Shown here piece by piece: positions 2,601 through 16,716 of a stretch of DNA of 17,149 nucleotides; the first letter of the stretch is position 1, and each line of letters starts with the position of its first letter. The DNA lies in contig SVLG01000047.1 of assembly GCA_015068055.1 (NCBI GenBank), positions 1 through 17,149 of the forward strand, in the 5' to 3' direction. The DNA is from Oscillospiraceae bacterium (lineage in GTDB: Bacteria > Bacillota_A > Clostridia > Oscillospirales > Oscillospiraceae). A program made the translations under genes and the position numbers. The notes beneath the pieces were generated by a model, which did not search any database, had not been told where the DNA came from, and saw only the letters and a program-made list of their open reading frames with translations.

Positions 2601-3260
2601 TTAAAGTAATCTTGTATTCATAGTCCCAATTGCTCGAAGAATATCGGTAACATCACCGCCAATTCTGTTAGTGCAGAATTGGGCCGGAAAGGCTTCAATC
2701 AAATTGGCCTCTATGCCATTAGATATTTTCTTTTTCCAAGCATAGATTCTTGTGGTGTCCAATGCTCGGAAGAAATCAATCGAGAAGGTGGATTTTTCCC
2801 AGGCATACATAGGGAACAATGTTCTGTCAAAAGGCTTTGTGTTCGACCAATGCTTCATAATACGCTTTCGTATATCTTCTGATTTGCCAATGTATGCTTG
2901 CTTATATTCATCAAGCACCATGATATAGAAGCCCTCAACACCATTGAAATCATTCAAATTAGTTACTTTTACAAATCTACTGTATTTTGATAGGAAAGAA
3001 GACAATGCAGCATCAAAGGCGGTCTTGTTGAGTTTGGAAAAATACTCCATATTACGGTCGAAGTTTCTCAAACAAATATCTCGATATTCAGCGCACCAGT
3101 CTGCAGAGTATTCTGTACCGTATTCGTCTGCGTATGCATTTCGCTTGGCCAGCGATTCGAAATAAGGGAGCGAAGGTTTTGTGTTGATTTGAGCAAAACA
3201 ATCTTTTGTTAAACGGAATCCTTTGCCCCTATCAATCAGTTTCACACCAAAGTGTTCCAT
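2601..3260 (-). CDS. GIY-YIG nuclease-like protein, function unknown
   Basis: The 219-residue product has an N-terminal region of about 105 residues that I do not recognise, then a GIY-YIG-type domain. Visible landmarks are GFY at 110-112, YIG at 123-125, R131/R133 in the following helix, E184/E189 and N198, matching the order expected of this nuclease fold. The catalytic Tyr, Arg and Glu candidates look intact, so activity is plausible. I chose ATG 3260 because GGAGGGG lies six bases before it; ATG 3275 overlaps that ribosome binding site, and the longer upstream reading passes through the tRNA gene. Its codons are clearly richer in A/T than all its neighbours, which suggests acquisition by transfer, and it lies directly downstream of a tRNA gene, a common insertion site. 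Known GIY-YIG proteins include homing, restriction and repair nucleases; which applies here is unknown. Confidence 0.75.
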   Translation of the reverse strand: MEHFGVKLIDRGKGFRLTKDCFAQINTKPSLPYFESLAKRNAYADEYGTEYSADWCAEYRDICLRNFDRNMEYFSKLNKTAFDAALSSFLSKYSRFVKVTNLNDFNGVEGFYIMVLDEYKQAYIGKSEDIRKRIMKHWSNTKPFDRTLFPMYAWEKSTFSIDFFRALDTTRIYAWKKKISNGIEANLIEAFPAQFCTNRIGGDVTDILRAIGTMNTRLL

Positions 3261-3281
3261 ATAAGTCCCCTCCATAATAAT

Positions 3282-3311
3282 ATGATAGCATACTGTGAAG
3301 AGAAAGAAAAG
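3282..3311 (-). promoter_or_regulatory. Possible promoter of the GIY-YIG gene
   Basis: On the minus strand TATCAT (3282-3287) is preceded by a T-rich TTTTCT about 17 bases upstream. The -10 is reasonable and the -35 is weak. It lies between the tRNA terminator and the start at 3260, where a promoter is needed. Confidence 0.35.
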
Positions 3312-3338
3312 GCCGATTTCTTCAAGATCGAAATAAAC

Positions 3339-3384
3339 AAAACCGACCCTGAATGACACAATTGTATCATTCAGGGTCGGTTTT
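3339..3384 (-). terminator. Long palindromic terminator of tRNA-Leu
   Basis: Two perfect 18-base arms (3339-3356 and 3367-3384, AAAACCGACCC... / ...GGGTCGGTTTT) flank a 10-base centre that is itself nearly palindromic. It begins one base after the CCA end of the tRNA on the minus strand and is followed by a T-rich tract. Being nearly symmetrical, it could stop transcription in both directions. Confidence 0.9.
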
Positions 3385-3385
3385 G

Positions 3386-3471
3386 TGGTGCCGGTGGTGG
3401 GGCTCGAACCCACACGGTGTTGCCACCAAAGGATTTTGAGTCCTCCTCGTCTACCATTCCAACACACCGGC
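3386..3471 (-). tRNA. tRNA-Leu (anticodon CAA)
   Basis: The minus strand folds as a class II tRNA: acceptor GCCGGTG / CACCGGC, anticodon stem GAGGA / TCCTT with loop CTCAAAA giving anticodon CAA (3436-3438), long variable arm GGTG-GCAA-CACC, and T arm GTGGG-TTCGAGC-CCCAC. CCA is encoded. The long variable arm and the CAA anticodon make it a leucine tRNA reading UUG. It has its own promoter and terminator. Confidence 0.96.
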
Positions 3472-3488
3472 ATATATCAAGCTTAATG

Positions 3489-8962: not shown

Positions 8963-10063
8963 ATGGCTACGAAGAAAACAGCGGCTGCGGCCCCTCCGGC
9001 CCCGGCCAGCGACAAGAAAAAGGCTCTGGAAACCGCTCTGGCCCAGATTGAAAAGAACTACGGCAAGGGCGCCATCATGCGCCTTGGCGACGATATTCCC
9101 GTAAACGTGGAAGCCATCCCCACCGGCTCTCTCTCCCTGGACCTGGCTCTCGGCATCGGCGGCGTCCCCCGGGGACGTATCATTGAAGTCTACGGCCCTG
9201 AGTCCTGCGGTAAGACCACCCTTGCTCTGCACATTGTGGCCAGCGCCCAGAAGGCGGGCGGCGAGGCCGCTTACATTGACGTGGAACACGCGCTGGAGCC
9301 CGCATATGCCCGCGCCCTGGGCGTCGACATTGAAAACCTGCTGATCTCCCAGCCGGATACCGGCGAGCAGGCTCTGGACATCACCGAGGCTCTGGTCCGC
9401 TCCGGCGGCGTAGATGTGGTGGTGGTGGACAGCGTGGCCGCCCTCCTCCCCCGCAGCGAGCTGGAAGGCGAGATGGGTGAAAGCAGCGTGGGCGTGGTGG
9501 CCCGCCTCATGAGCCAGGCCCTCCGCAAGCTGGCCGGTGCCATCTCCAAGACCAACACCGTGGTGGTCTTTATTAACCAGCTGCGCGAGAAGATCGGCGT
9601 TATGTACGGCAACCCCGAGACTACCCCCGGCGGCCGTGCCCTCAAGTACTTTGCCAGCGTCCGCATCGACATGCGCCGCATTGAGACTCTCAAAAACGGC
9701 AGCGAGATGATCGGCAACCGTACCCGGGCCAAGGTCATCAAGAACAAGGTGGCCCCTCCCTTCAAGGAGGCCGAGTTCGACATCGTCTACGGCGAAGGCA
9801 TCTCCAAGGTGGGTGAGGTCATTGATCTGGGTGTAAAGCTGGAGATCATTGACAAGGCCGGCGCCTGGTTCACCATCAACGGCGAACGCGTGCAGGGCCG
9901 CGAGGCCGTGCGGGAATACCTGCTCTCCAACCCCGATGTTTTTGAAAAGATCGAAAACGAGATCCGCGCCAATGCCCACAAGCTTATGAGTCCTCAGGCC
10001 AAGCGCGCCGCCATTGCCGCGGGCCGGGCCATTGACATCTCGGCCGACGACTTTGAAGGATGA
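8963..10063 (+). CDS. recA: Recombinase RecA
   Basis: RecA forms filaments on single-stranded DNA, carries out homologous strand exchange and stimulates self-cleavage of LexA-type repressors. The N-terminus is Ala/Pro/Lys-rich and reaches the core at [20 protein letters not shown]. Walker A is GPESCGKT (78-85), with Cys where most RecA proteins have Ser. Walker B is [10 protein letters not shown]. The L2 DNA-binding loop reads [13 protein letters not shown]. At 366 residues the length is typical, with a short acidic C-terminus. An AGGAGG site precedes the ATG. The stop overlaps the recX start by ATGA, so the two are translationally coupled. In this window its natural client could be the S24-type repressor encoded about 5 kb downstream. 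Confidence 0.98.
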
Positions 10064-10509
10064 ACGACGAGGCTAAGGCCCGCGCCTTAAAGATCCTCGA
10101 AAAGCGGGACGTCTCCCGGAAAATGCTCGTTGACAAGCTCACGGAAAAAGGCATCCCCGATGCCGATGCCGAAGAGGTGGCCGATTGGCTGACGGAGCTG
10201 CGGGTCATTGATGATGAGCGCTACGCGGGTCTTGTGGTGCGGCACTATGCCGGCAAGGGCTACGGGGAGCGCCGCATCAAAGAAGAGCTTTACCACCGGG
10301 GTATACCCCGGGAGTACTGGGAAGCCGCGCTGGAGGAAATGCCGGAACAGGACGAAACACTGGAGCGTTTCATCCGCAGCCGTCTCCGTGGCGCAGAGCC
10401 CAACCACGAAAACCTCAAAAAGATCATAAACGCTCTTCTGCGCCGGGGCCACTCCTGGGAGGATATCAACGCCGCGGTGGAGCATGTGAGAGCGGAGGAA
10501 CAGGAATGA
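10060..10509 (+). CDS. recX: RecA regulator RecX
   Basis: RecX binds RecA filaments and limits or modulates their growth and coprotease activity. The 149-residue protein consists of the family's tandem three-helix repeats: [23 protein letters not shown], the next with [25 protein letters not shown], and a third ending [18 protein letters not shown]. It is slightly shorter than the E. coli protein. It overlaps recA at ATGA on its 5' side and rimO at ATGA on its 3' side, which implies coupled translation and a fixed dosage relative to RecA. The assignment rests on the motif pattern and the neighbour recA. Confidence 0.93.
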
Positions 10510-13786: not shown

Positions 13787-14434
13787 TTACTTCTTGAGAT
13801 GGGCACCGCCGCTTCCGCTGCGGGGCCGGATGACAACGATGTCATAATAGGGTTCGGGGATAAAGCGCATGAGGAAAAAGGCCGCGATACCGCCGATGAG
13901 TCCCACCAGAACGCCGCCCACCACGTCGGTGAAGTAATGGACAGAAAGATACATACGGGAAACGCCCATCAGAGCCGCGAAAAGAAAGATTGGCCAGCTT
14001 CTGCGTTTATCATAGCTGAGAAAAACGCCGGTGGAAAAGGCCATAGCCGCGGTGGTGTGGCCCGAGGGGAAGCTGAAGTCACTCTCCGTATGCTGCCCCA
14101 CCAGCATCCAATACTGCTGGTAAATGCTGCCGTCATGGCTGTACGGCCTGGGTCGATAGACCAGAGGCTTGAAAGCAAGGTTGGTAAGCAGCGCGCCAAT
14201 AGCCAGCGCCAGAAGCATACAGGTACCCGCCCGCCGGGTCTTGGGAAAGAGCATCATCACCATTGAAAAGGCGATCAAAAAGGCGCCGCCCTTGCCCAAC
14301 AGGGAGATAAAGTTCATAAACGGGGTGAAAAACCAGGGGGCCGCCTCGTAGAGTCCGTGTACCGCTGTGGCCACCGAAGCGTCCAACCCGGCGCAGGCGG
14401 TGTTGAGCCAGAGGGCTACTGCCGTCAGTTCCAT
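13787..14434 (-). CDS. PAP2-family membrane phosphatase
   Basis: This 215-residue integral membrane protein belongs to the PAP2 superfamily, which dephosphorylates lipid phosphates such as phosphatidic acid or undecaprenyl pyrophosphate. All three catalytic motifs are intact: K-x6-RP as K89 to R96-P97, PSGH at 123-126, and SR-x5-H-x3-D as S159-R160, H166 and D170. About five to six hydrophobic segments surround them. The active site would face outward. It starts three bases after the stop of the Cys-rich gene, so translation is probably coupled, and precedes fba by 23 bases. A GGAG lies about 12 bases upstream of the ATG, a little far. Recycling of undecaprenyl pyrophosphate (BcrC-like) is one possible role; the substrate is not readable from sequence. 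Confidence 0.9.
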   Translation of the reverse strand: MELTAVALWLNTACAGLDASVATAVHGLYEAAPWFFTPFMNFISLLGKGGAFLIAFSMVMMLFPKTRRAGTCMLLALAIGALLTNLAFKPLVYRPRPYSHDGSIYQQYWMLVGQHTESDFSFPSGHTTAAMAFSTGVFLSYDKRRSWPIFLFAALMGVSRMYLSVHYFTDVVGGVLVGLIGGIAAFFLMRFIPEPYYDIVVIRPRSGSGGAHLKK

Positions 14435-14437
14435 GTT

Positions 14438-14713
14438 TTATGTGTTCTCCTTATTTTTATGTTCTTCTTCGATGCGCTTGATTTCCTGCATCAACCGCCG
14501 CTGCACAAAGGTCCAGCTGTTGGCATCATGAATGAGCAGACAGTTGGAGCAGTCTTTGATCCCCTTGGCCGTATAACTGGCGTTGCCGCCGCAGTCGGCC
14601 AGGAAGTAGAGAGGACAGTAGCAGAACAGGCAGTTCAGCTCATCTCCCAGTTCAGGATGGCAGGGATAGTATTTGCAACCCTTATTGGCAAAAAAACGAT
14701 TGGAGTTTTCCAT
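14438..14713 (-). CDS. Cysteine-rich small domain protein
   Basis: This 91-residue protein matches the Cys-rich small domain family of anaerobes. Eight Cys (13, 18, 28, 31, 33, 41, 55, 58) and the pattern FFANKGCKYYPCH, NCLFCYCPLY, CGGNASYTAKGIKDCSNC are the hallmark; they could bind zinc or an iron-sulfur cluster. Function is unknown; homologues are often found near cobalamin genes, which are absent here. I chose ATG 14713 because homologues as I know them start MENS-x-FF and it lies four bases after the repressor stop. The reading from 14755 would overlap the repressor gene by 38 bases and lacks a ribosome binding site. The Lys/Glu-rich tail is probably helical. Confidence 0.82.
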   Translation of the reverse strand: MENSNRFFANKGCKYYPCHPELGDELNCLFCYCPLYFLADCGGNASYTAKGIKDCSNCLLIHDANSWTFVQRRLMQEIKRIEEEHKNKENT

Positions 14714-14717
14714 TATG

Positions 14718-15320
14718 TCAACCAACCACCTTTCCAAATACTCTGAATTCATCATCCGGCCCTACAGCCAGAGGCGCGTAAGCATGGTTCAGGGAAACCA
14801 GCAGCGGGCTCCCGTGTTCCCGGGCCAACCGCTTGCAGAAACTCTGACCATTGAGATAGAAAATGCCGATCTCTCCCAGCTCCAGCGTAGACTGTCGCCG
14901 CACCCAGACGATCTGGCCGTTTACAAAGCGGGGGGCCATGCTGTCACCGGCGATGCGCACACCAAAGTCAGCCTGAGCCGATACTTCGCTTCCTACCTCC
15001 ACCATATCATAACCGGCATTTTCCAGAAACTGGCCGGTACCGGCGGAAACTGCCAGAGAATAGAGGGGTAGACTGCGCAGCCGCCGCTCCTCGCTGTGCT
15101 CCGGCTGGAGAAAGGTACGCTGAACATCCGTTACCCTATATAGTTTACATAATATTAGGAACTCCGCTGCGTTGGGAAGGGTGGTATCCTTCTCCCACTT
15201 GCTGACAGCCTGGGTTTTTACAGGCCAGCCCTGCTCTGTGAGGCGGCGCGCCACTTCACCCTGAGTCCATCCCTGCTGCTTCCGCAGCTCCGCAAGCCGG
15301 GTTCCAAAGCTTTTTTCCAT
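14718..15320 (-). CDS. XRE/S24 self-cleaving repressor (LexA/HdiR-like)
   Basis: This 200-residue repressor has a Cro/CI-type helix-turn-helix at about 5-60 (WTQGEVARRLTEQ, AVSKWEKDTTLPN) and an S24 (LexA-type) peptidase domain at about 88-200. The likely autocleavage bond is A93-G94 in AVSAGTG, with nucleophile S127 in GDSMAP and general base K163 in FCKRLA, all in the order known from LexA, CI and HdiR. Such proteins cleave themselves when RecA filaments form, which releases their operators. I chose ATG 15320: AGGAG lies eight bases before it, while ATG 15326 is only two bases from that site. It is divergent from a Y-family polymerase across a gap with three operator-like repeats, so it most likely represses that polymerase and perhaps itself. 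It is not canonical LexA, whose HTH differs. Confidence 0.9.
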   Translation of the reverse strand: MEKSFGTRLAELRKQQGWTQGEVARRLTEQGWPVKTQAVSKWEKDTTLPNAAEFLILCKLYRVTDVQRTFLQPEHSEERRLRSLPLYSLAVSAGTGQFLENAGYDMVEVGSEVSAQADFGVRIAGDSMAPRFVNGQIVWVRRQSTLELGEIGIFYLNGQSFCKRLAREHGSPLLVSLNHAYAPLAVGPDDEFRVFGKVVG

Positions 15321-15340
15321 AGGCATCTCTCCTTTGTCTT

Positions 15341-15369
15341 ACTATATACCATTTTATATAAATTGGCAA
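15341..15369 (-). promoter_or_regulatory. Promoter of the S24 repressor (TTGCCA-17-TATAGT)
   Basis: On the minus strand TTGCCA (15364-15369) and TATAGT (15341-15346) are 17 bases apart. Transcription would start near 15334, giving a short leader with the AAAGGAG site. The nearest operator-like repeat (15377-15394) lies just upstream of the -35 and not within the promoter. Confidence 0.8.
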
Positions 15370-15376
15370 GTGTTTC

Positions 15377-15394
15377 TCTTAACGAGCGAATTTT
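15377..15394 (+). promoter_or_regulatory. Operator-like repeat O1
   Basis: TCTTAACGAGCGAATTTT matches the other two copies except in the centre (ACG in place of AT/TA) and is the least symmetrical copy. It lies between the two promoters, eight bases upstream of the repressor -35. Confidence 0.75.
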
Positions 15395-15398
15395 CCTC

Positions 15399-15427
15399 TT
15401 GATTTATCTTATTAAGCGAATTATAAT
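15399..15427 (+). promoter_or_regulatory. Promoter of the Y-family polymerase (TTGATT-17-TATAAT)
   Basis: TTGATT (15399-15404) and TATAAT (15422-15427) are exactly 17 bases apart. Transcription would begin near 15434, about 32 bases before the polymerase ATG. Operator-like repeat O2 fills the spacer and part of the -10, and O3 covers the start region. Confidence 0.88.
15407..15424 (+). promoter_or_regulatory. Operator-like repeat O2
   Basis: TCTTATTAAGCGAATTAT contains the perfect palindrome CTTA-T-TAAG followed by CGAATT, shared with O1 and O3. It occupies the space between the -35 and -10 of the polymerase promoter, so a bound repressor would exclude RNA polymerase. Confidence 0.82.
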
Positions 15428-15435
15428 AGGAATTA

Positions 15436-15453
15436 GCTTAATAAGCGAATTTT
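15436..15453 (+). promoter_or_regulatory. Operator-like repeat O3
   Basis: GCTTAATAAGCGAATTTT contains the perfect palindrome GCTTA-A-TAAGC followed by CGAATT. It lies just after the expected start point of the polymerase transcript, 29 bases from O2, which is itself 30 bases from O1. Confidence 0.82.
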
Positions 15454-15465
15454 ACGAGGTGCCTT

Positions 15466-16716
15466 ATGAAGCCTGTCATTTTTCATGTGGATGTCAACAG
15501 CGCCTTTCTCTCCTGGACGGCCGCGGAGCGGCTGCGGCGGGGTGACCCGCTGGATCTGAGAACCGTCCCCTCCGTCATCGCCGGTGACAAGGAGGAACGT
15601 CACGGCATCATTCTGGCCAAGAGCACCCCGGCCAAGGCCTTTGGCATCAAGACCGGGGAACCCATCTGGAAAGCGCAGCAAAAGTGTCCGGAGCTTATCA
15701 TAGAGCGGCCGGATTATGCCCTCTATGTCCGCGAGTCCCGGCGCTTTGTGGCGCTGCTGCGGGATACGGCCCCGCTGGTGGAGCAGTATTCCATCGACGA
15801 GGCCTGGGCCGACATGAGCGGCACCACCTGGAGCCGGGGCGACCCGCTGGAGGCAGCGGAACAGCTGCGGCTGCGGGTCAAAAAAGAGTTGGGCTTCACG
15901 GTAAATGTCGGTGTCAGCAGCAACAAGCTCCTTGCCAAAATGGCCGGGGACCTCCGCAAGCCCGACCGGGTCAACACGCTCTTTCCACATGAGATAGAGG
16001 AAAAGCTCTGGCCCCTGCCGGTGCGGGAACTTTTCTCCGTCGGTCCCGCCACAGAAAGAAAGCTGGCCTTCTTTGGCATCCACACCATCGGCGAGCTGGC
16101 AAAAAGCGACCCGGACTTCCTCCGCGCCCGGCTCCACAGTCACGGAGAGCTGATCTGGCACTATGCCAACGGCCGGGGGGACTGCCGTGTCTGCAACGAA
16201 ACCGAGCCCAACAAGGGCTACGGCAACTCCGTTACCACCGCCCGGGATGTAACCGACGCCCTCAGTGCCCACCGGGTACTCCTTTCCCTCTGCGAAACCG
16301 TAGGGGCACGGATGCGGGCCGACGGCCAGACGGGCCGGGTGGTGATGGTACATATCCGAAACGGCGAACTGGAGGACTGCTCTCACCAGCGGCCCCTCCC
16401 CTGCTGCACCGCGGCTACCAACGAGATTTGGGAGAGTGCCTGCCGTTGCTTCGATGAGCTGTGGGACGGGCATACGCCCCTGCGGCAGCTGGGTGTGCAG
16501 GTAAGCCATGTGGTCATGGGCGCGCCCCGGCAGTTTGACTTTCTGGACCAGCGGGGCGAGCGCTGGGACCGGCTGGACAAGGCCGTGGACAAGGTGCGAG
16601 GCAAATACGGGGAGGATGCCCTCTACCGGGCCTGCTTTCTCCGGGGCGAGAGTCCCGCCATGGGCGGCGGTCTCAGCAAGCACCGGCGCACGGGCATCAC
16701 CAAGCCTTTGGGCTAA
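15466..16716 (+). CDS. Y-family DNA polymerase (Pol IV / UmuC-type)
   Basis: This is an error-prone translesion DNA polymerase of 416 residues. The palm begins VIFHVDVNSAFLSW, with catalytic D9 and steric-gate F14; the second acidic cluster is SIDEAWADM with D111 and E112. Finger residues and the little-finger domain (about 245-350) follow, and QFDFL (356-360) is a plausible though divergent beta-clamp binding motif. The DVNSAFLSW start is typical of a subset of Clostridia polymerases that are related to DinB/UmuC but distinct from textbook DinB. ATG 15466 has GAGGT five bases upstream. It is divergent from the S24 repressor, and O2/O3 cover its promoter, so it should be strongly repressed and induced by DNA damage. 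I leave the gene symbol blank because dinB and umuC are not separable here. Confidence 0.93.
   Translation: MKPVIFHVDVNSAFLSWTAAERLRRGDPLDLRTVPSVIAGDKEERHGIILAKSTPAKAFGIKTGEPIWKAQQKCPELIIERPDYALYVRESRRFVALLRDTAPLVEQYSIDEAWADMSGTTWSRGDPLEAAEQLRLRVKKELGFTVNVGVSSNKLLAKMAGDLRKPDRVNTLFPHEIEEKLWPLPVRELFSVGPATERKLAFFGIHTIGELAKSDPDFLRARLHSHGELIWHYANGRGDCRVCNETEPNKGYGNSVTTARDVTDALSAHRVLLSLCETVGARMRADGQTGRVVMVHIRNGELEDCSHQRPLPCCTAATNEIWESACRCFDELWDGHTPLRQLGVQVSHVVMGAPRQFDFLDQRGERWDRLDKAVDKVRGKYGEDALYRACFLRGESPAMGGGLSKHRRTGITKPLG

What the first reader, a model, noticed from the sequence alone, without database searches (positions are those of the whole stretch)
14718..16716. Self-contained SOS-type switch: S24 repressor divergent from a Y-family polymerase
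The repressor has an intact autocleavage triad (A93-G94, S127, K163) and a CI-type HTH. Its divergent neighbour is an error-prone polymerase. Seen directly: gene order, catalytic residues, promoters and repeats. Known: HdiR/CI/LexA relatives cleave themselves with RecA. Inferred: DNA damage releases the polymerase independently of classical LexA. A second, non-LexA damage circuit in Clostridia is little described.
Basis: partly seen in the sequence, partly recalled or inferred. Interest (0 to 1): 0.7.

Follow-up and report, generated by a model that had tools for sequence, protein, structure and literature searches.

The report
Phage-type repressor guarding error-prone polymerase
A bacterium related to gut and rumen Clostridia carries a phage-like, probably self-cleaving repressor back to back with an error-prone DNA polymerase, and in its closest relatives this repressor may stand in for LexA, the usual master switch of the DNA-damage response.

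Summary
Window 14718-15320(-) is an XRE-HTH/S24 repressor with an intact A-G/S/K cleavage set, divergent from a Y-family polymerase (15466-16716,+). The 'repeats' are three near-palindromes (TTCGCTTAWTAAGCGAA-like), 30 and 29 bp apart; the middle one fills the polymerase promoter spacer. Eight of eight loci compared (window, seven genomes of the nearest genus) keep three such sites, before PolY, an ImuB-C-like gene, or both. In four of the five genomes that hold a second, UvrX-type polymerase elsewhere, the operator fills that promoter's spacer too. LexA-lineage relatives of the polymerase carry a LexA-type box at the operon promoter instead (13 of 14). None of the seven repressor carriers has LexA over the family cut-off; the two genus members without the repressor hold only a divergent LexA-family protein beside another polymerase. 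So 'second circuit beside LexA' is less likely than 'local take-over after loss of canonical LexA'. No full operator precedes recA. The kind is known (HdiR, UmuDAb, FddR-dinB, Bacteroidetes); I found no report for these Clostridia. Binding, RecA-dependent cleavage and induction are inferred; the window's own genome was not available.

The parts
14718..15320 (-). XRE-HTH + S24 repressor, 200 aa from the second ATG (an ATG at 15326 would add 2 aa)
   Evidence: PF00717 2.9e-22, PF13560, PF01381; PHROG 4 'transcriptional repressor' 1.1e-29 over residues 3-202; A-G, S, K invariant in 37 aligned rows; model closest to LexA, with lambda and 186 repressors further down
15466..16716 (+). Y-family DNA polymerase, 416 aa
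   Evidence: PF00817 1.8e-37, PF11799, PF11798; NCBIfam PRK03103 324.5 bits, below its cut-off of 381
15374..15390 (+). operator O1 TTCTCTTAACGAGCGAA, just upstream of the repressor -35
   Evidence: 3 mismatches to TTCGCTTAWTAAGCGAA; a site at this place in 8 of 8 loci
15404..15420 (+). operator O2 TTATCTTATTAAGCGAA, fills the polymerase promoter spacer
   Evidence: 2 mismatches; perfect palindrome TTCGCTTAATAAGCGAA at this place in G001
15433..15449 (+). operator O3 TTAGCTTAATAAGCGAA, over the expected start of polymerase transcription
   Evidence: 1 mismatch; a site at this place in 8 of 8 loci
15399..15427 (+). predicted polymerase promoter TTGATT-17-TATAAT
   Evidence: consensus reading; same or similar hexamers before the first cargo gene in the 7 relatives of the genus
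15341..15369 (-). predicted repressor promoter TTGCCA-17-TATAGT
   Evidence: consensus reading

Best explanation
A minimal SOS-type switch built on a co-opted phage-type repressor. Shown by sequence: the repressor has an XRE DNA-binding domain and a complete S24 self-cleavage set; three related 17-bp near-palindromes lie between it and the polymerase, one of them filling the -35/-10 spacer of the polymerase promoter. Inferred: repressor dimers on O2 and O3 shut the polymerase promoter; after DNA damage RecA-ssDNA filaments trigger cleavage at Ala93-Gly94, repression falls and the translesion polymerase is made. O1 abuts the repressor's own -35 from upstream, so autoregulation is likely but its sign is open. 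In the window's closest relatives the repressor seems to hold the translesion promoters in place of a lost canonical LexA: the same operator stands before an ImuB-C-like gene and/or PolY in cis and before a UvrX-type polymerase in trans, while recA has no full site.
For: Cleavage residues invariant in 37 aligned rows. Fold closest to LexA-DNA and LexA-RecA structures, lambda repressor further down (pLDDT 85.1, pTM 0.55). Three operators spaced 29-31 bp in 8 of 8 loci (window plus 7 genomes). Operator in the uvrX-type promoter spacer in 4 of the 5 genomes with such a gene. LexA over cut-off in 0 of 7 genus members with the repressor; in a family sample of 200, 4 of 39 with a close repressor against 108 of the other 161 (Fisher p 5.8e-11, relatedness not corrected). 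LexA-type box 28-52 bp upstream of the ImuB-C-like gene in 13 of 14 other relatives of the polymerase, none within 1500 bp in window or G001. Divergent S24/Y-polymerase pairs in 20 of the 200 family genomes by coordinates (lower bound) plus G044, and in L006, L016 and L018.
Against: No binding, cleavage or expression data. The window's own genome is not held; the relatives are largely metagenome assemblies and no completeness was given. Genome-wide the operator pattern is no commoner than its reversed control (26 against 24 sites at <=3 mismatches over 7 genomes), so the argument rests on where sites lie. Palindrome test on single spacers: below p 0.05 in 1 of 8 cis spacers of the genus, 2 of 4 uvrX-type spacers, 0 of 20 spacers of the other S24-linked polymerases; it also failed for 0 of 14 LexA-lineage promoters passing, so it has little power. 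G090 has no operator at its uvrX-type gene and holds a LexA-family protein at 100.7 bits, just under the cut-off of 110.95. The LexA of the two genus members without the repressor is itself divergent (138-140 bits, LexA DNA-binding domain under its cut-off). 19 of 24 full-length relatives are not beside a polymerase.
Confidence: 0.78

Rival explanations
1. A true second circuit: the window's genome also has an ordinary LexA, and the S24 pair is an extra, locally controlled polymerase module that fires in parallel.
For: Divergent S24/Y-polymerase pairs occur in genomes with LexA over the cut-off: G021, G047, G058, G083, G122, G159; L006, L016 and L018 lie in genomes with LexA.
Against: In the nearest genus 0 of 7 repressor carriers have LexA over the cut-off; the repressors beside the polymerase in G047, G058, G083, G122 and G159 are distant (E 1e-17 to 1e-24).
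Confidence: 0.15
2. Switch with another trigger: the S24 protein represses the polymerase but is released by something other than RecA filaments (heat or Clp proteolysis, an antirepressor, a phage signal).
For: HdiR of Lactococcus also needs Clp processing and answers heat (passages of PMC8565304). A CI-like repressor can in principle meet an antirepressor (recalled).
Against: The cleavage site and catalytic pair are kept in 37 aligned rows, and a Y-family polymerase or an ImuB-C-like gene lies divergent in all 7 genus members with the repressor.
Confidence: 0.12
3. Mobile-element leftover: a prophage or integrative-element immunity repressor that happens to sit beside a polymerase.
For: Full-length match to the CI-type PHROG 4; 421 phage records and 75 plasmid records match, all below 60% identity.
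Against: PAP2 gene behind the repressor in 6 of 7 genus relatives; window flanks include recA, RimO and a class II aldolase and no phage gene was noticed in the ORF list; operators kept in 8 of 8 loci.
Confidence: 0.05

Closest known systems
HdiR of Streptococcaceae (Lactococcus, S. uberis, S. thermophilus)
   Same: LexA-like repressor in LexA-less bacteria, controls itself and a UmuC-type polymerase, RecA-triggered self-cleavage (passages of PMC8565304 and PMC9578287)
   Different: Other lineage; here cargo is PolY, an ImuB-C-like gene and a UvrX-type polymerase; operator TTCGCTTAWTAAGCGAA; Clp step unknown; HdiR sequence not compared
FddR-dinB of Francisella (PMC13148647; abstract and two sections read)
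   Same: Co-opted phage-type S24 repressor divergent from a Y-family polymerase as a self-contained unit; recA not induced
   Different: FddR binds GTG-N11-CAC, shown there by gel shift; [quoted passage not shown] no ImuB-C cargo mentioned in what I read
UmuDAb of Acinetobacter (search listings)
   Same: LexA-less lineage; UmuD-type protein with DNA-binding domain represses error-prone polymerase genes
   Different: UmuD-derived, with the DdrR corepressor; here an XRE HTH of CI type
Bacteroidetes LexA-like S24 repressors (PMC8565304, passages)
   Same: Phage-type repressor (COG2932) running an SOS-like network without LexA
   Different: Other motifs (GGA-N5-TCC, CTAA-N5-TTAG) and larger networks according to PMC13148647
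LexA-box ImuB-C-PolY operons
   Same: Same polymerase clade (100/99 support); ImuB-C coupling with YqjH-type polymerases of Clostridia is described in PMC6511836 (section 17)
   Different: Those carry a LexA-type box at the promoter; here another repressor and operator sit there

Membership tests
S24 self-cleaving repressors (LexA/CI/UmuD fold) | S24 domain with Ala-Gly site and Ser/Lys pair | tested here: met
   PF00717 2.9e-22; residues invariant in 37 aligned rows
S24 self-cleaving repressors (LexA/CI/UmuD fold) | RecA-stimulated self-cleavage | not testable with these tools
   needs protein
canonical LexA (TIGR00498) | score over 110.95 bits | tested here: not met
   31.9 bits, residues 92-202 only
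canonical LexA (TIGR00498) | LexA-type winged HTH (PF01726) | tested here: not met
   Pfam reported only S24, HTH_31, HTH_3 and HTH_19 at E <= 0.001
phage CI-type repressor (PHROG 4) | full-length match to the family | tested here: met
   1.1e-29, residues 3-202
phage CI-type repressor (PHROG 4) | sits in a prophage | tested here: inconclusive
   no phage gene noticed in the 17-kb ORF list; not every ORF was profiled, and beyond the window nothing is known
UmuD (PRK10276) | score over 110 bits, no DNA-binding domain | tested here: not met
   38 bits and an N-terminal HTH
FddR | GTG-N11-CAC operator | tested here: not met
   the three conserved sites are TTCGCTTAWTAAGCGAA-like
HdiR | orthology to Lactococcus HdiR | not tested
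   no HdiR sequence compared
Y-family polymerase | IMS catalytic and C-terminal domains | tested here: met
   PF00817, PF11798, PF11799 over cut-off
LexA substitute in its genus | LexA absent where the repressor is present | tested here: inconclusive
   0 of 7 carriers over the cut-off, but G090 has a LexA-family protein at 100.7 bits, the comparison LexAs of G205 and G161 are divergent, and the window genome is untested
LexA substitute in its genus | controls recA as well | tested here: not met
   best site before recA has 9, 6, 8 and 8 mismatches in window, G001, G002, G090; the 6-mismatch G001 site keeps one half ATAAGCGA, and 42 of 500 shuffles do as well. G206-G209 not examined

The most novel reading that the evidence does not exclude
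A regulator swap caught part-way: in one Oscillospiraceae-type lineage canonical LexA was lost and a phage-type S24 repressor took over the translesion promoters one by one, its 17-bp operator coming to occupy the same -35/-10 spacer that a LexA box occupies in sister lineages. The window and G001 show the cis-only state (G001 has a single Y-family match; for the window this is assumed), G209 the ImuB-C-like/PolY cassette, and G002, G206, G207 and G208 the cis plus trans (uvrX-type) state. (Odds lowered from 0.55 to 0.5 after one search showed that the LexA proteins of G205 and G161 are divergent ones, like that of G090.)
Probability: 0.5. Interest if true: 0.65.

Novelty: new member of a known kind. 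Interest (0 to 1): 0.5.

Why it matters
It would place take-over of SOS promoters by phage-type repressors, known from streptococci, Acinetobacter, Bacteroidetes and Francisella, in gut and rumen Clostridia, where I found little on inducible mutagenesis. Related genomes that share one polymerase family and one promoter layout, some with a LexA-type box and some with this operator, make the question 'how does a regulon change its regulator?' directly testable, site by site.

Tried and rejected
Operator before recA: no full site in window, G001, G002 or G090 (G001 has a half-site), and none seen by eye in the 17 relatives printed (in most of these the repressor's operator differs and I judged by eye only), so no full SOS regulon is claimed. 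Prophage origin: only weak phage and plasmid relatives. A genome-wide operator count as proof of a regulon: rejected, since the reversed control pattern is as common (26 against 24 sites); of the 11 sites with at most 2 mismatches, 9 lie at the repressor or uvrX-type promoters, 2 elsewhere. Palindrome test on single spacers: mostly not significant (figures under evidence against). One origin against several for the S24-polymerase link: the tree does not decide (1 change needed, support 53/55). ImuB-C: no Pfam or NCBIfam profile hit four small proteins of this type (L006, L019, where the L002 ORF given was a wrong one; L082, L002), so the name rests on likeness among themselves, on place before PolY and on PMC6511836. 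'UvrX-type' is a recalled label for the second polymerase; profiles say Y-family. Rfam: only a tRNA. The cut 'close repressor' = E <= 1e-25 (39 of 200 genomes) was chosen after seeing and the genomes are related, so the Fisher value is descriptive. LexA DNA-binding domain PF01726: 9 of 46 genomes over the cut-off; G069 and G081 strongly, the other seven at 23-30 bits (G001, G206, G209 of the genus among them). I take these for other winged-helix proteins (the G001 and G206 hits matched only positions 6-62 of the LexA model) but did not examine each; the divergent LexAs of G205 and G161 stay under this cut-off, so the test is not sensitive here. Pair counts were read by eye in lists that were cut off. 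Papers: Oscillospiraceae + LexA + SOS response gave none; searches showed no report of this system among the titles and abstracts listed, in an open-licence library only; (Tn5252) was not followed up.

Full report
Check of the observation. ORF calls and profiles confirm an XRE-HTH/S24 protein on the minus strand at 14718-15320 (or 15326) and a Y-family polymerase on the plus strand at 15466-16716, 139 bp apart from the longer start. The residue numbers in the finding fit the 200-aa start, which is also the length of the identical database protein. The A-G pair, the serine and the lysine are invariant in 37 aligned rows: the window, 30 of the 120 listed database proteins and 6 loci, of which L001 and L002 repeat listed proteins. 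The AlphaFold model (pLDDT 85.1, pTM 0.55, residues 92-103 mostly uncertain) has LexA as best PDB match, with lambda and 186 repressors and UmuD' further down; the relative placement of the two domains should not be trusted.

The operators. In G001 the middle one is perfect, TTCGCTTAATAAGCGAA. In the window O1, O2 and O3 differ from TTCGCTTAWTAAGCGAA at 3, 2 and 1 places and lie 30 and 29 bp apart, about three helical turns; 1000 shuffles of the intergenic region never gave three sites at that stringency. O2 falls in the 17-bp spacer between TTGATT and TATAAT of the polymerase promoter, O3 over its expected start, O1 just upstream of the repressor's own -35.

Relatives. A scan of species genomes with the repressor gave 188 relatives, 80 kept. 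Of the 24 full-length ones, 5 (L001, L006, L016, L018, L022) have the polymerase divergent from it and 19 do not. In a sample of 200 genomes of the family of G001 (the genome of L001), 186 match the repressor at 1e-3, many of them weakly, 173 match the polymerase and 112 have LexA over the cut-off. Coordinates show a divergent repressor-polymerase pair in 20 of the 200 (G001, G006, G010, G014, G017, G021, G046, G047, G058, G060, G083, G094, G122, G158, G159, G164, G171, G174, G176, G183), one same-strand pair (G127), and one more divergent pair seen on fetched DNA (G044).

LexA. Of the 39 genomes with a close repressor (E <= 1e-25), 4 (G021, G069, G081, G172) have LexA over the cut-off, against 108 of the other 161 (relatedness not corrected). 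In the genus of G001, 7 of 9 genomes have the repressor at 60-76% identity and none of these 7 has LexA over the cut-off. The other two, G205 and G161, do (140 and 138 bits), but theirs is a divergent LexA, under the cut-off of the LexA DNA-binding domain (22.4 and 21.2 bits against 23.7), and lies beside another Y-family polymerase. G090 has a protein of similar look at 100.7 bits, beside an ORF that I read as a serine recombinase. So the split within the genus depends on the cut-off; what holds for all nine is that no strong canonical LexA was found. recA was found in 17 of 18 genomes checked, G001, G002 and G090 among them, so missing LexA is unlikely to be only missing sequence; G206-G209 were not checked for recA.

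What it controls. In the genus the gene divergent from the repressor is PolY (G001, as in the window), an ImuB-C-like gene followed by PolY (G209), or the ImuB-C-like gene alone (G002, G090, G206, G207, G208). No Pfam or NCBIfam profile recognises the small protein; I name it from its likeness to the gene before PolY in the relatives and from the coupling reported in PMC6511836 (section 17). The five genomes with that gene alone carry a longer Y-family polymerase elsewhere, which I call UvrX-type. In G002, G206, G207 and G208 the repressor's operator fills the 17-bp spacer of that gene's promoter, TTGAAA-[TTCGCTTAAYAAGCTAA]-TATAAT or a close variant; in G090 it does not, and the upstream of a second such gene in G207 was not read. 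Before recA there is no full site; G001 has a half-site there, which 42 of 500 shuffles match.

LexA-lineage counterpart. The 14 nearest other polymerases (55-63% identity) all have an ImuB-C-like gene upstream. In 13 of 14 a LexA-type box (at most 2 mismatches to the recalled CGAAC-N4-GTTCG) lies 28-52 bp before that gene, in 9 of the 14 with at most 1 mismatch, where a simple count expects about 0.04 per 1500 bp; L134 lacks one there. 13 of these 14 genomes have LexA over the cut-off; G170 showed no match. Window and G001 have no such box within 1500 bp. In six (G102, G147, G142, G058, G202, G018) the box lies in the same -35/-10 spacer (G058 by eye). A tree of 43 polymerases puts window, G001 and G209 together (92/82) inside a clade (100/99) with these 14, far from the other S24-linked polymerases; order within the clade is unresolved and one origin of the S24 link is not excluded.

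Mechanism and standing. The best reading is a small SOS-type switch: repression by promoter occupation, release by RecA-triggered self-cleavage, output limited to translesion synthesis. The first half rests on conserved sequence, the second on the known behaviour of S24 repressors. The kind is known: HdiR, UmuDAb, Bacteroidetes repressors (passages; listings) and FddR-dinB in Francisella, where gel shifts were done and where stepwise rebuilding of a network from such divergent units was proposed. What is added here is a new lineage, a new operator, PolY, ImuB-C-like and UvrX-type genes as cargo, and related genomes that show LexA-type box and S24 operator in the same promoter position.

Noticed in passing
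14438-14713 (-) and 13787-14434 (-): Directly behind the repressor lie a cysteine-rich small-domain gene (PF04071) and a PAP2 phosphatase; both follow it in G001, and PAP2 follows in G002, G090, G206, G207 and G208. They may be co-transcribed with the repressor.
   Followed up: partly
8963-10509: recA and a RecX-like gene (76 bits, below cut-off) lie in the same window about 5 kb from the switch, without its operator.
   Followed up: yes
L003-L005, L007-L015, L017, L019-L021, L023, L024: Relatives of the repressor (40-47% identity) without an adjacent polymerase, many near an ORF with a GPSGSGKTT motif. In G141, polymerase and repressor lie on different contigs and a TATC-N7-GATA palindrome fills the polymerase promoter spacer (L192); a repressor of G010 has a like site upstream (L211). 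Perhaps the same regulation in trans.
   Followed up: partly
L246 around 1501 (G206:C97:26107): A 2-mismatch operator before an unidentified ORF; possible further target.
   Followed up: no
L230, L231 (G205, G161); L232 (G090): Divergent LexA-family genes: in G205 and G161 beside a Y-family polymerase (39-40% to the UvrX-type one of G002), in G090 beside a serine-recombinase-like ORF. Perhaps a parallel local solution.
   Followed up: partly
2601-3473 (-): The long ORF runs across a tRNA gene (3389-3471, minus strand), so its real start is probably further in; weak GIY-YIG match below the cut-off.
   Followed up: no
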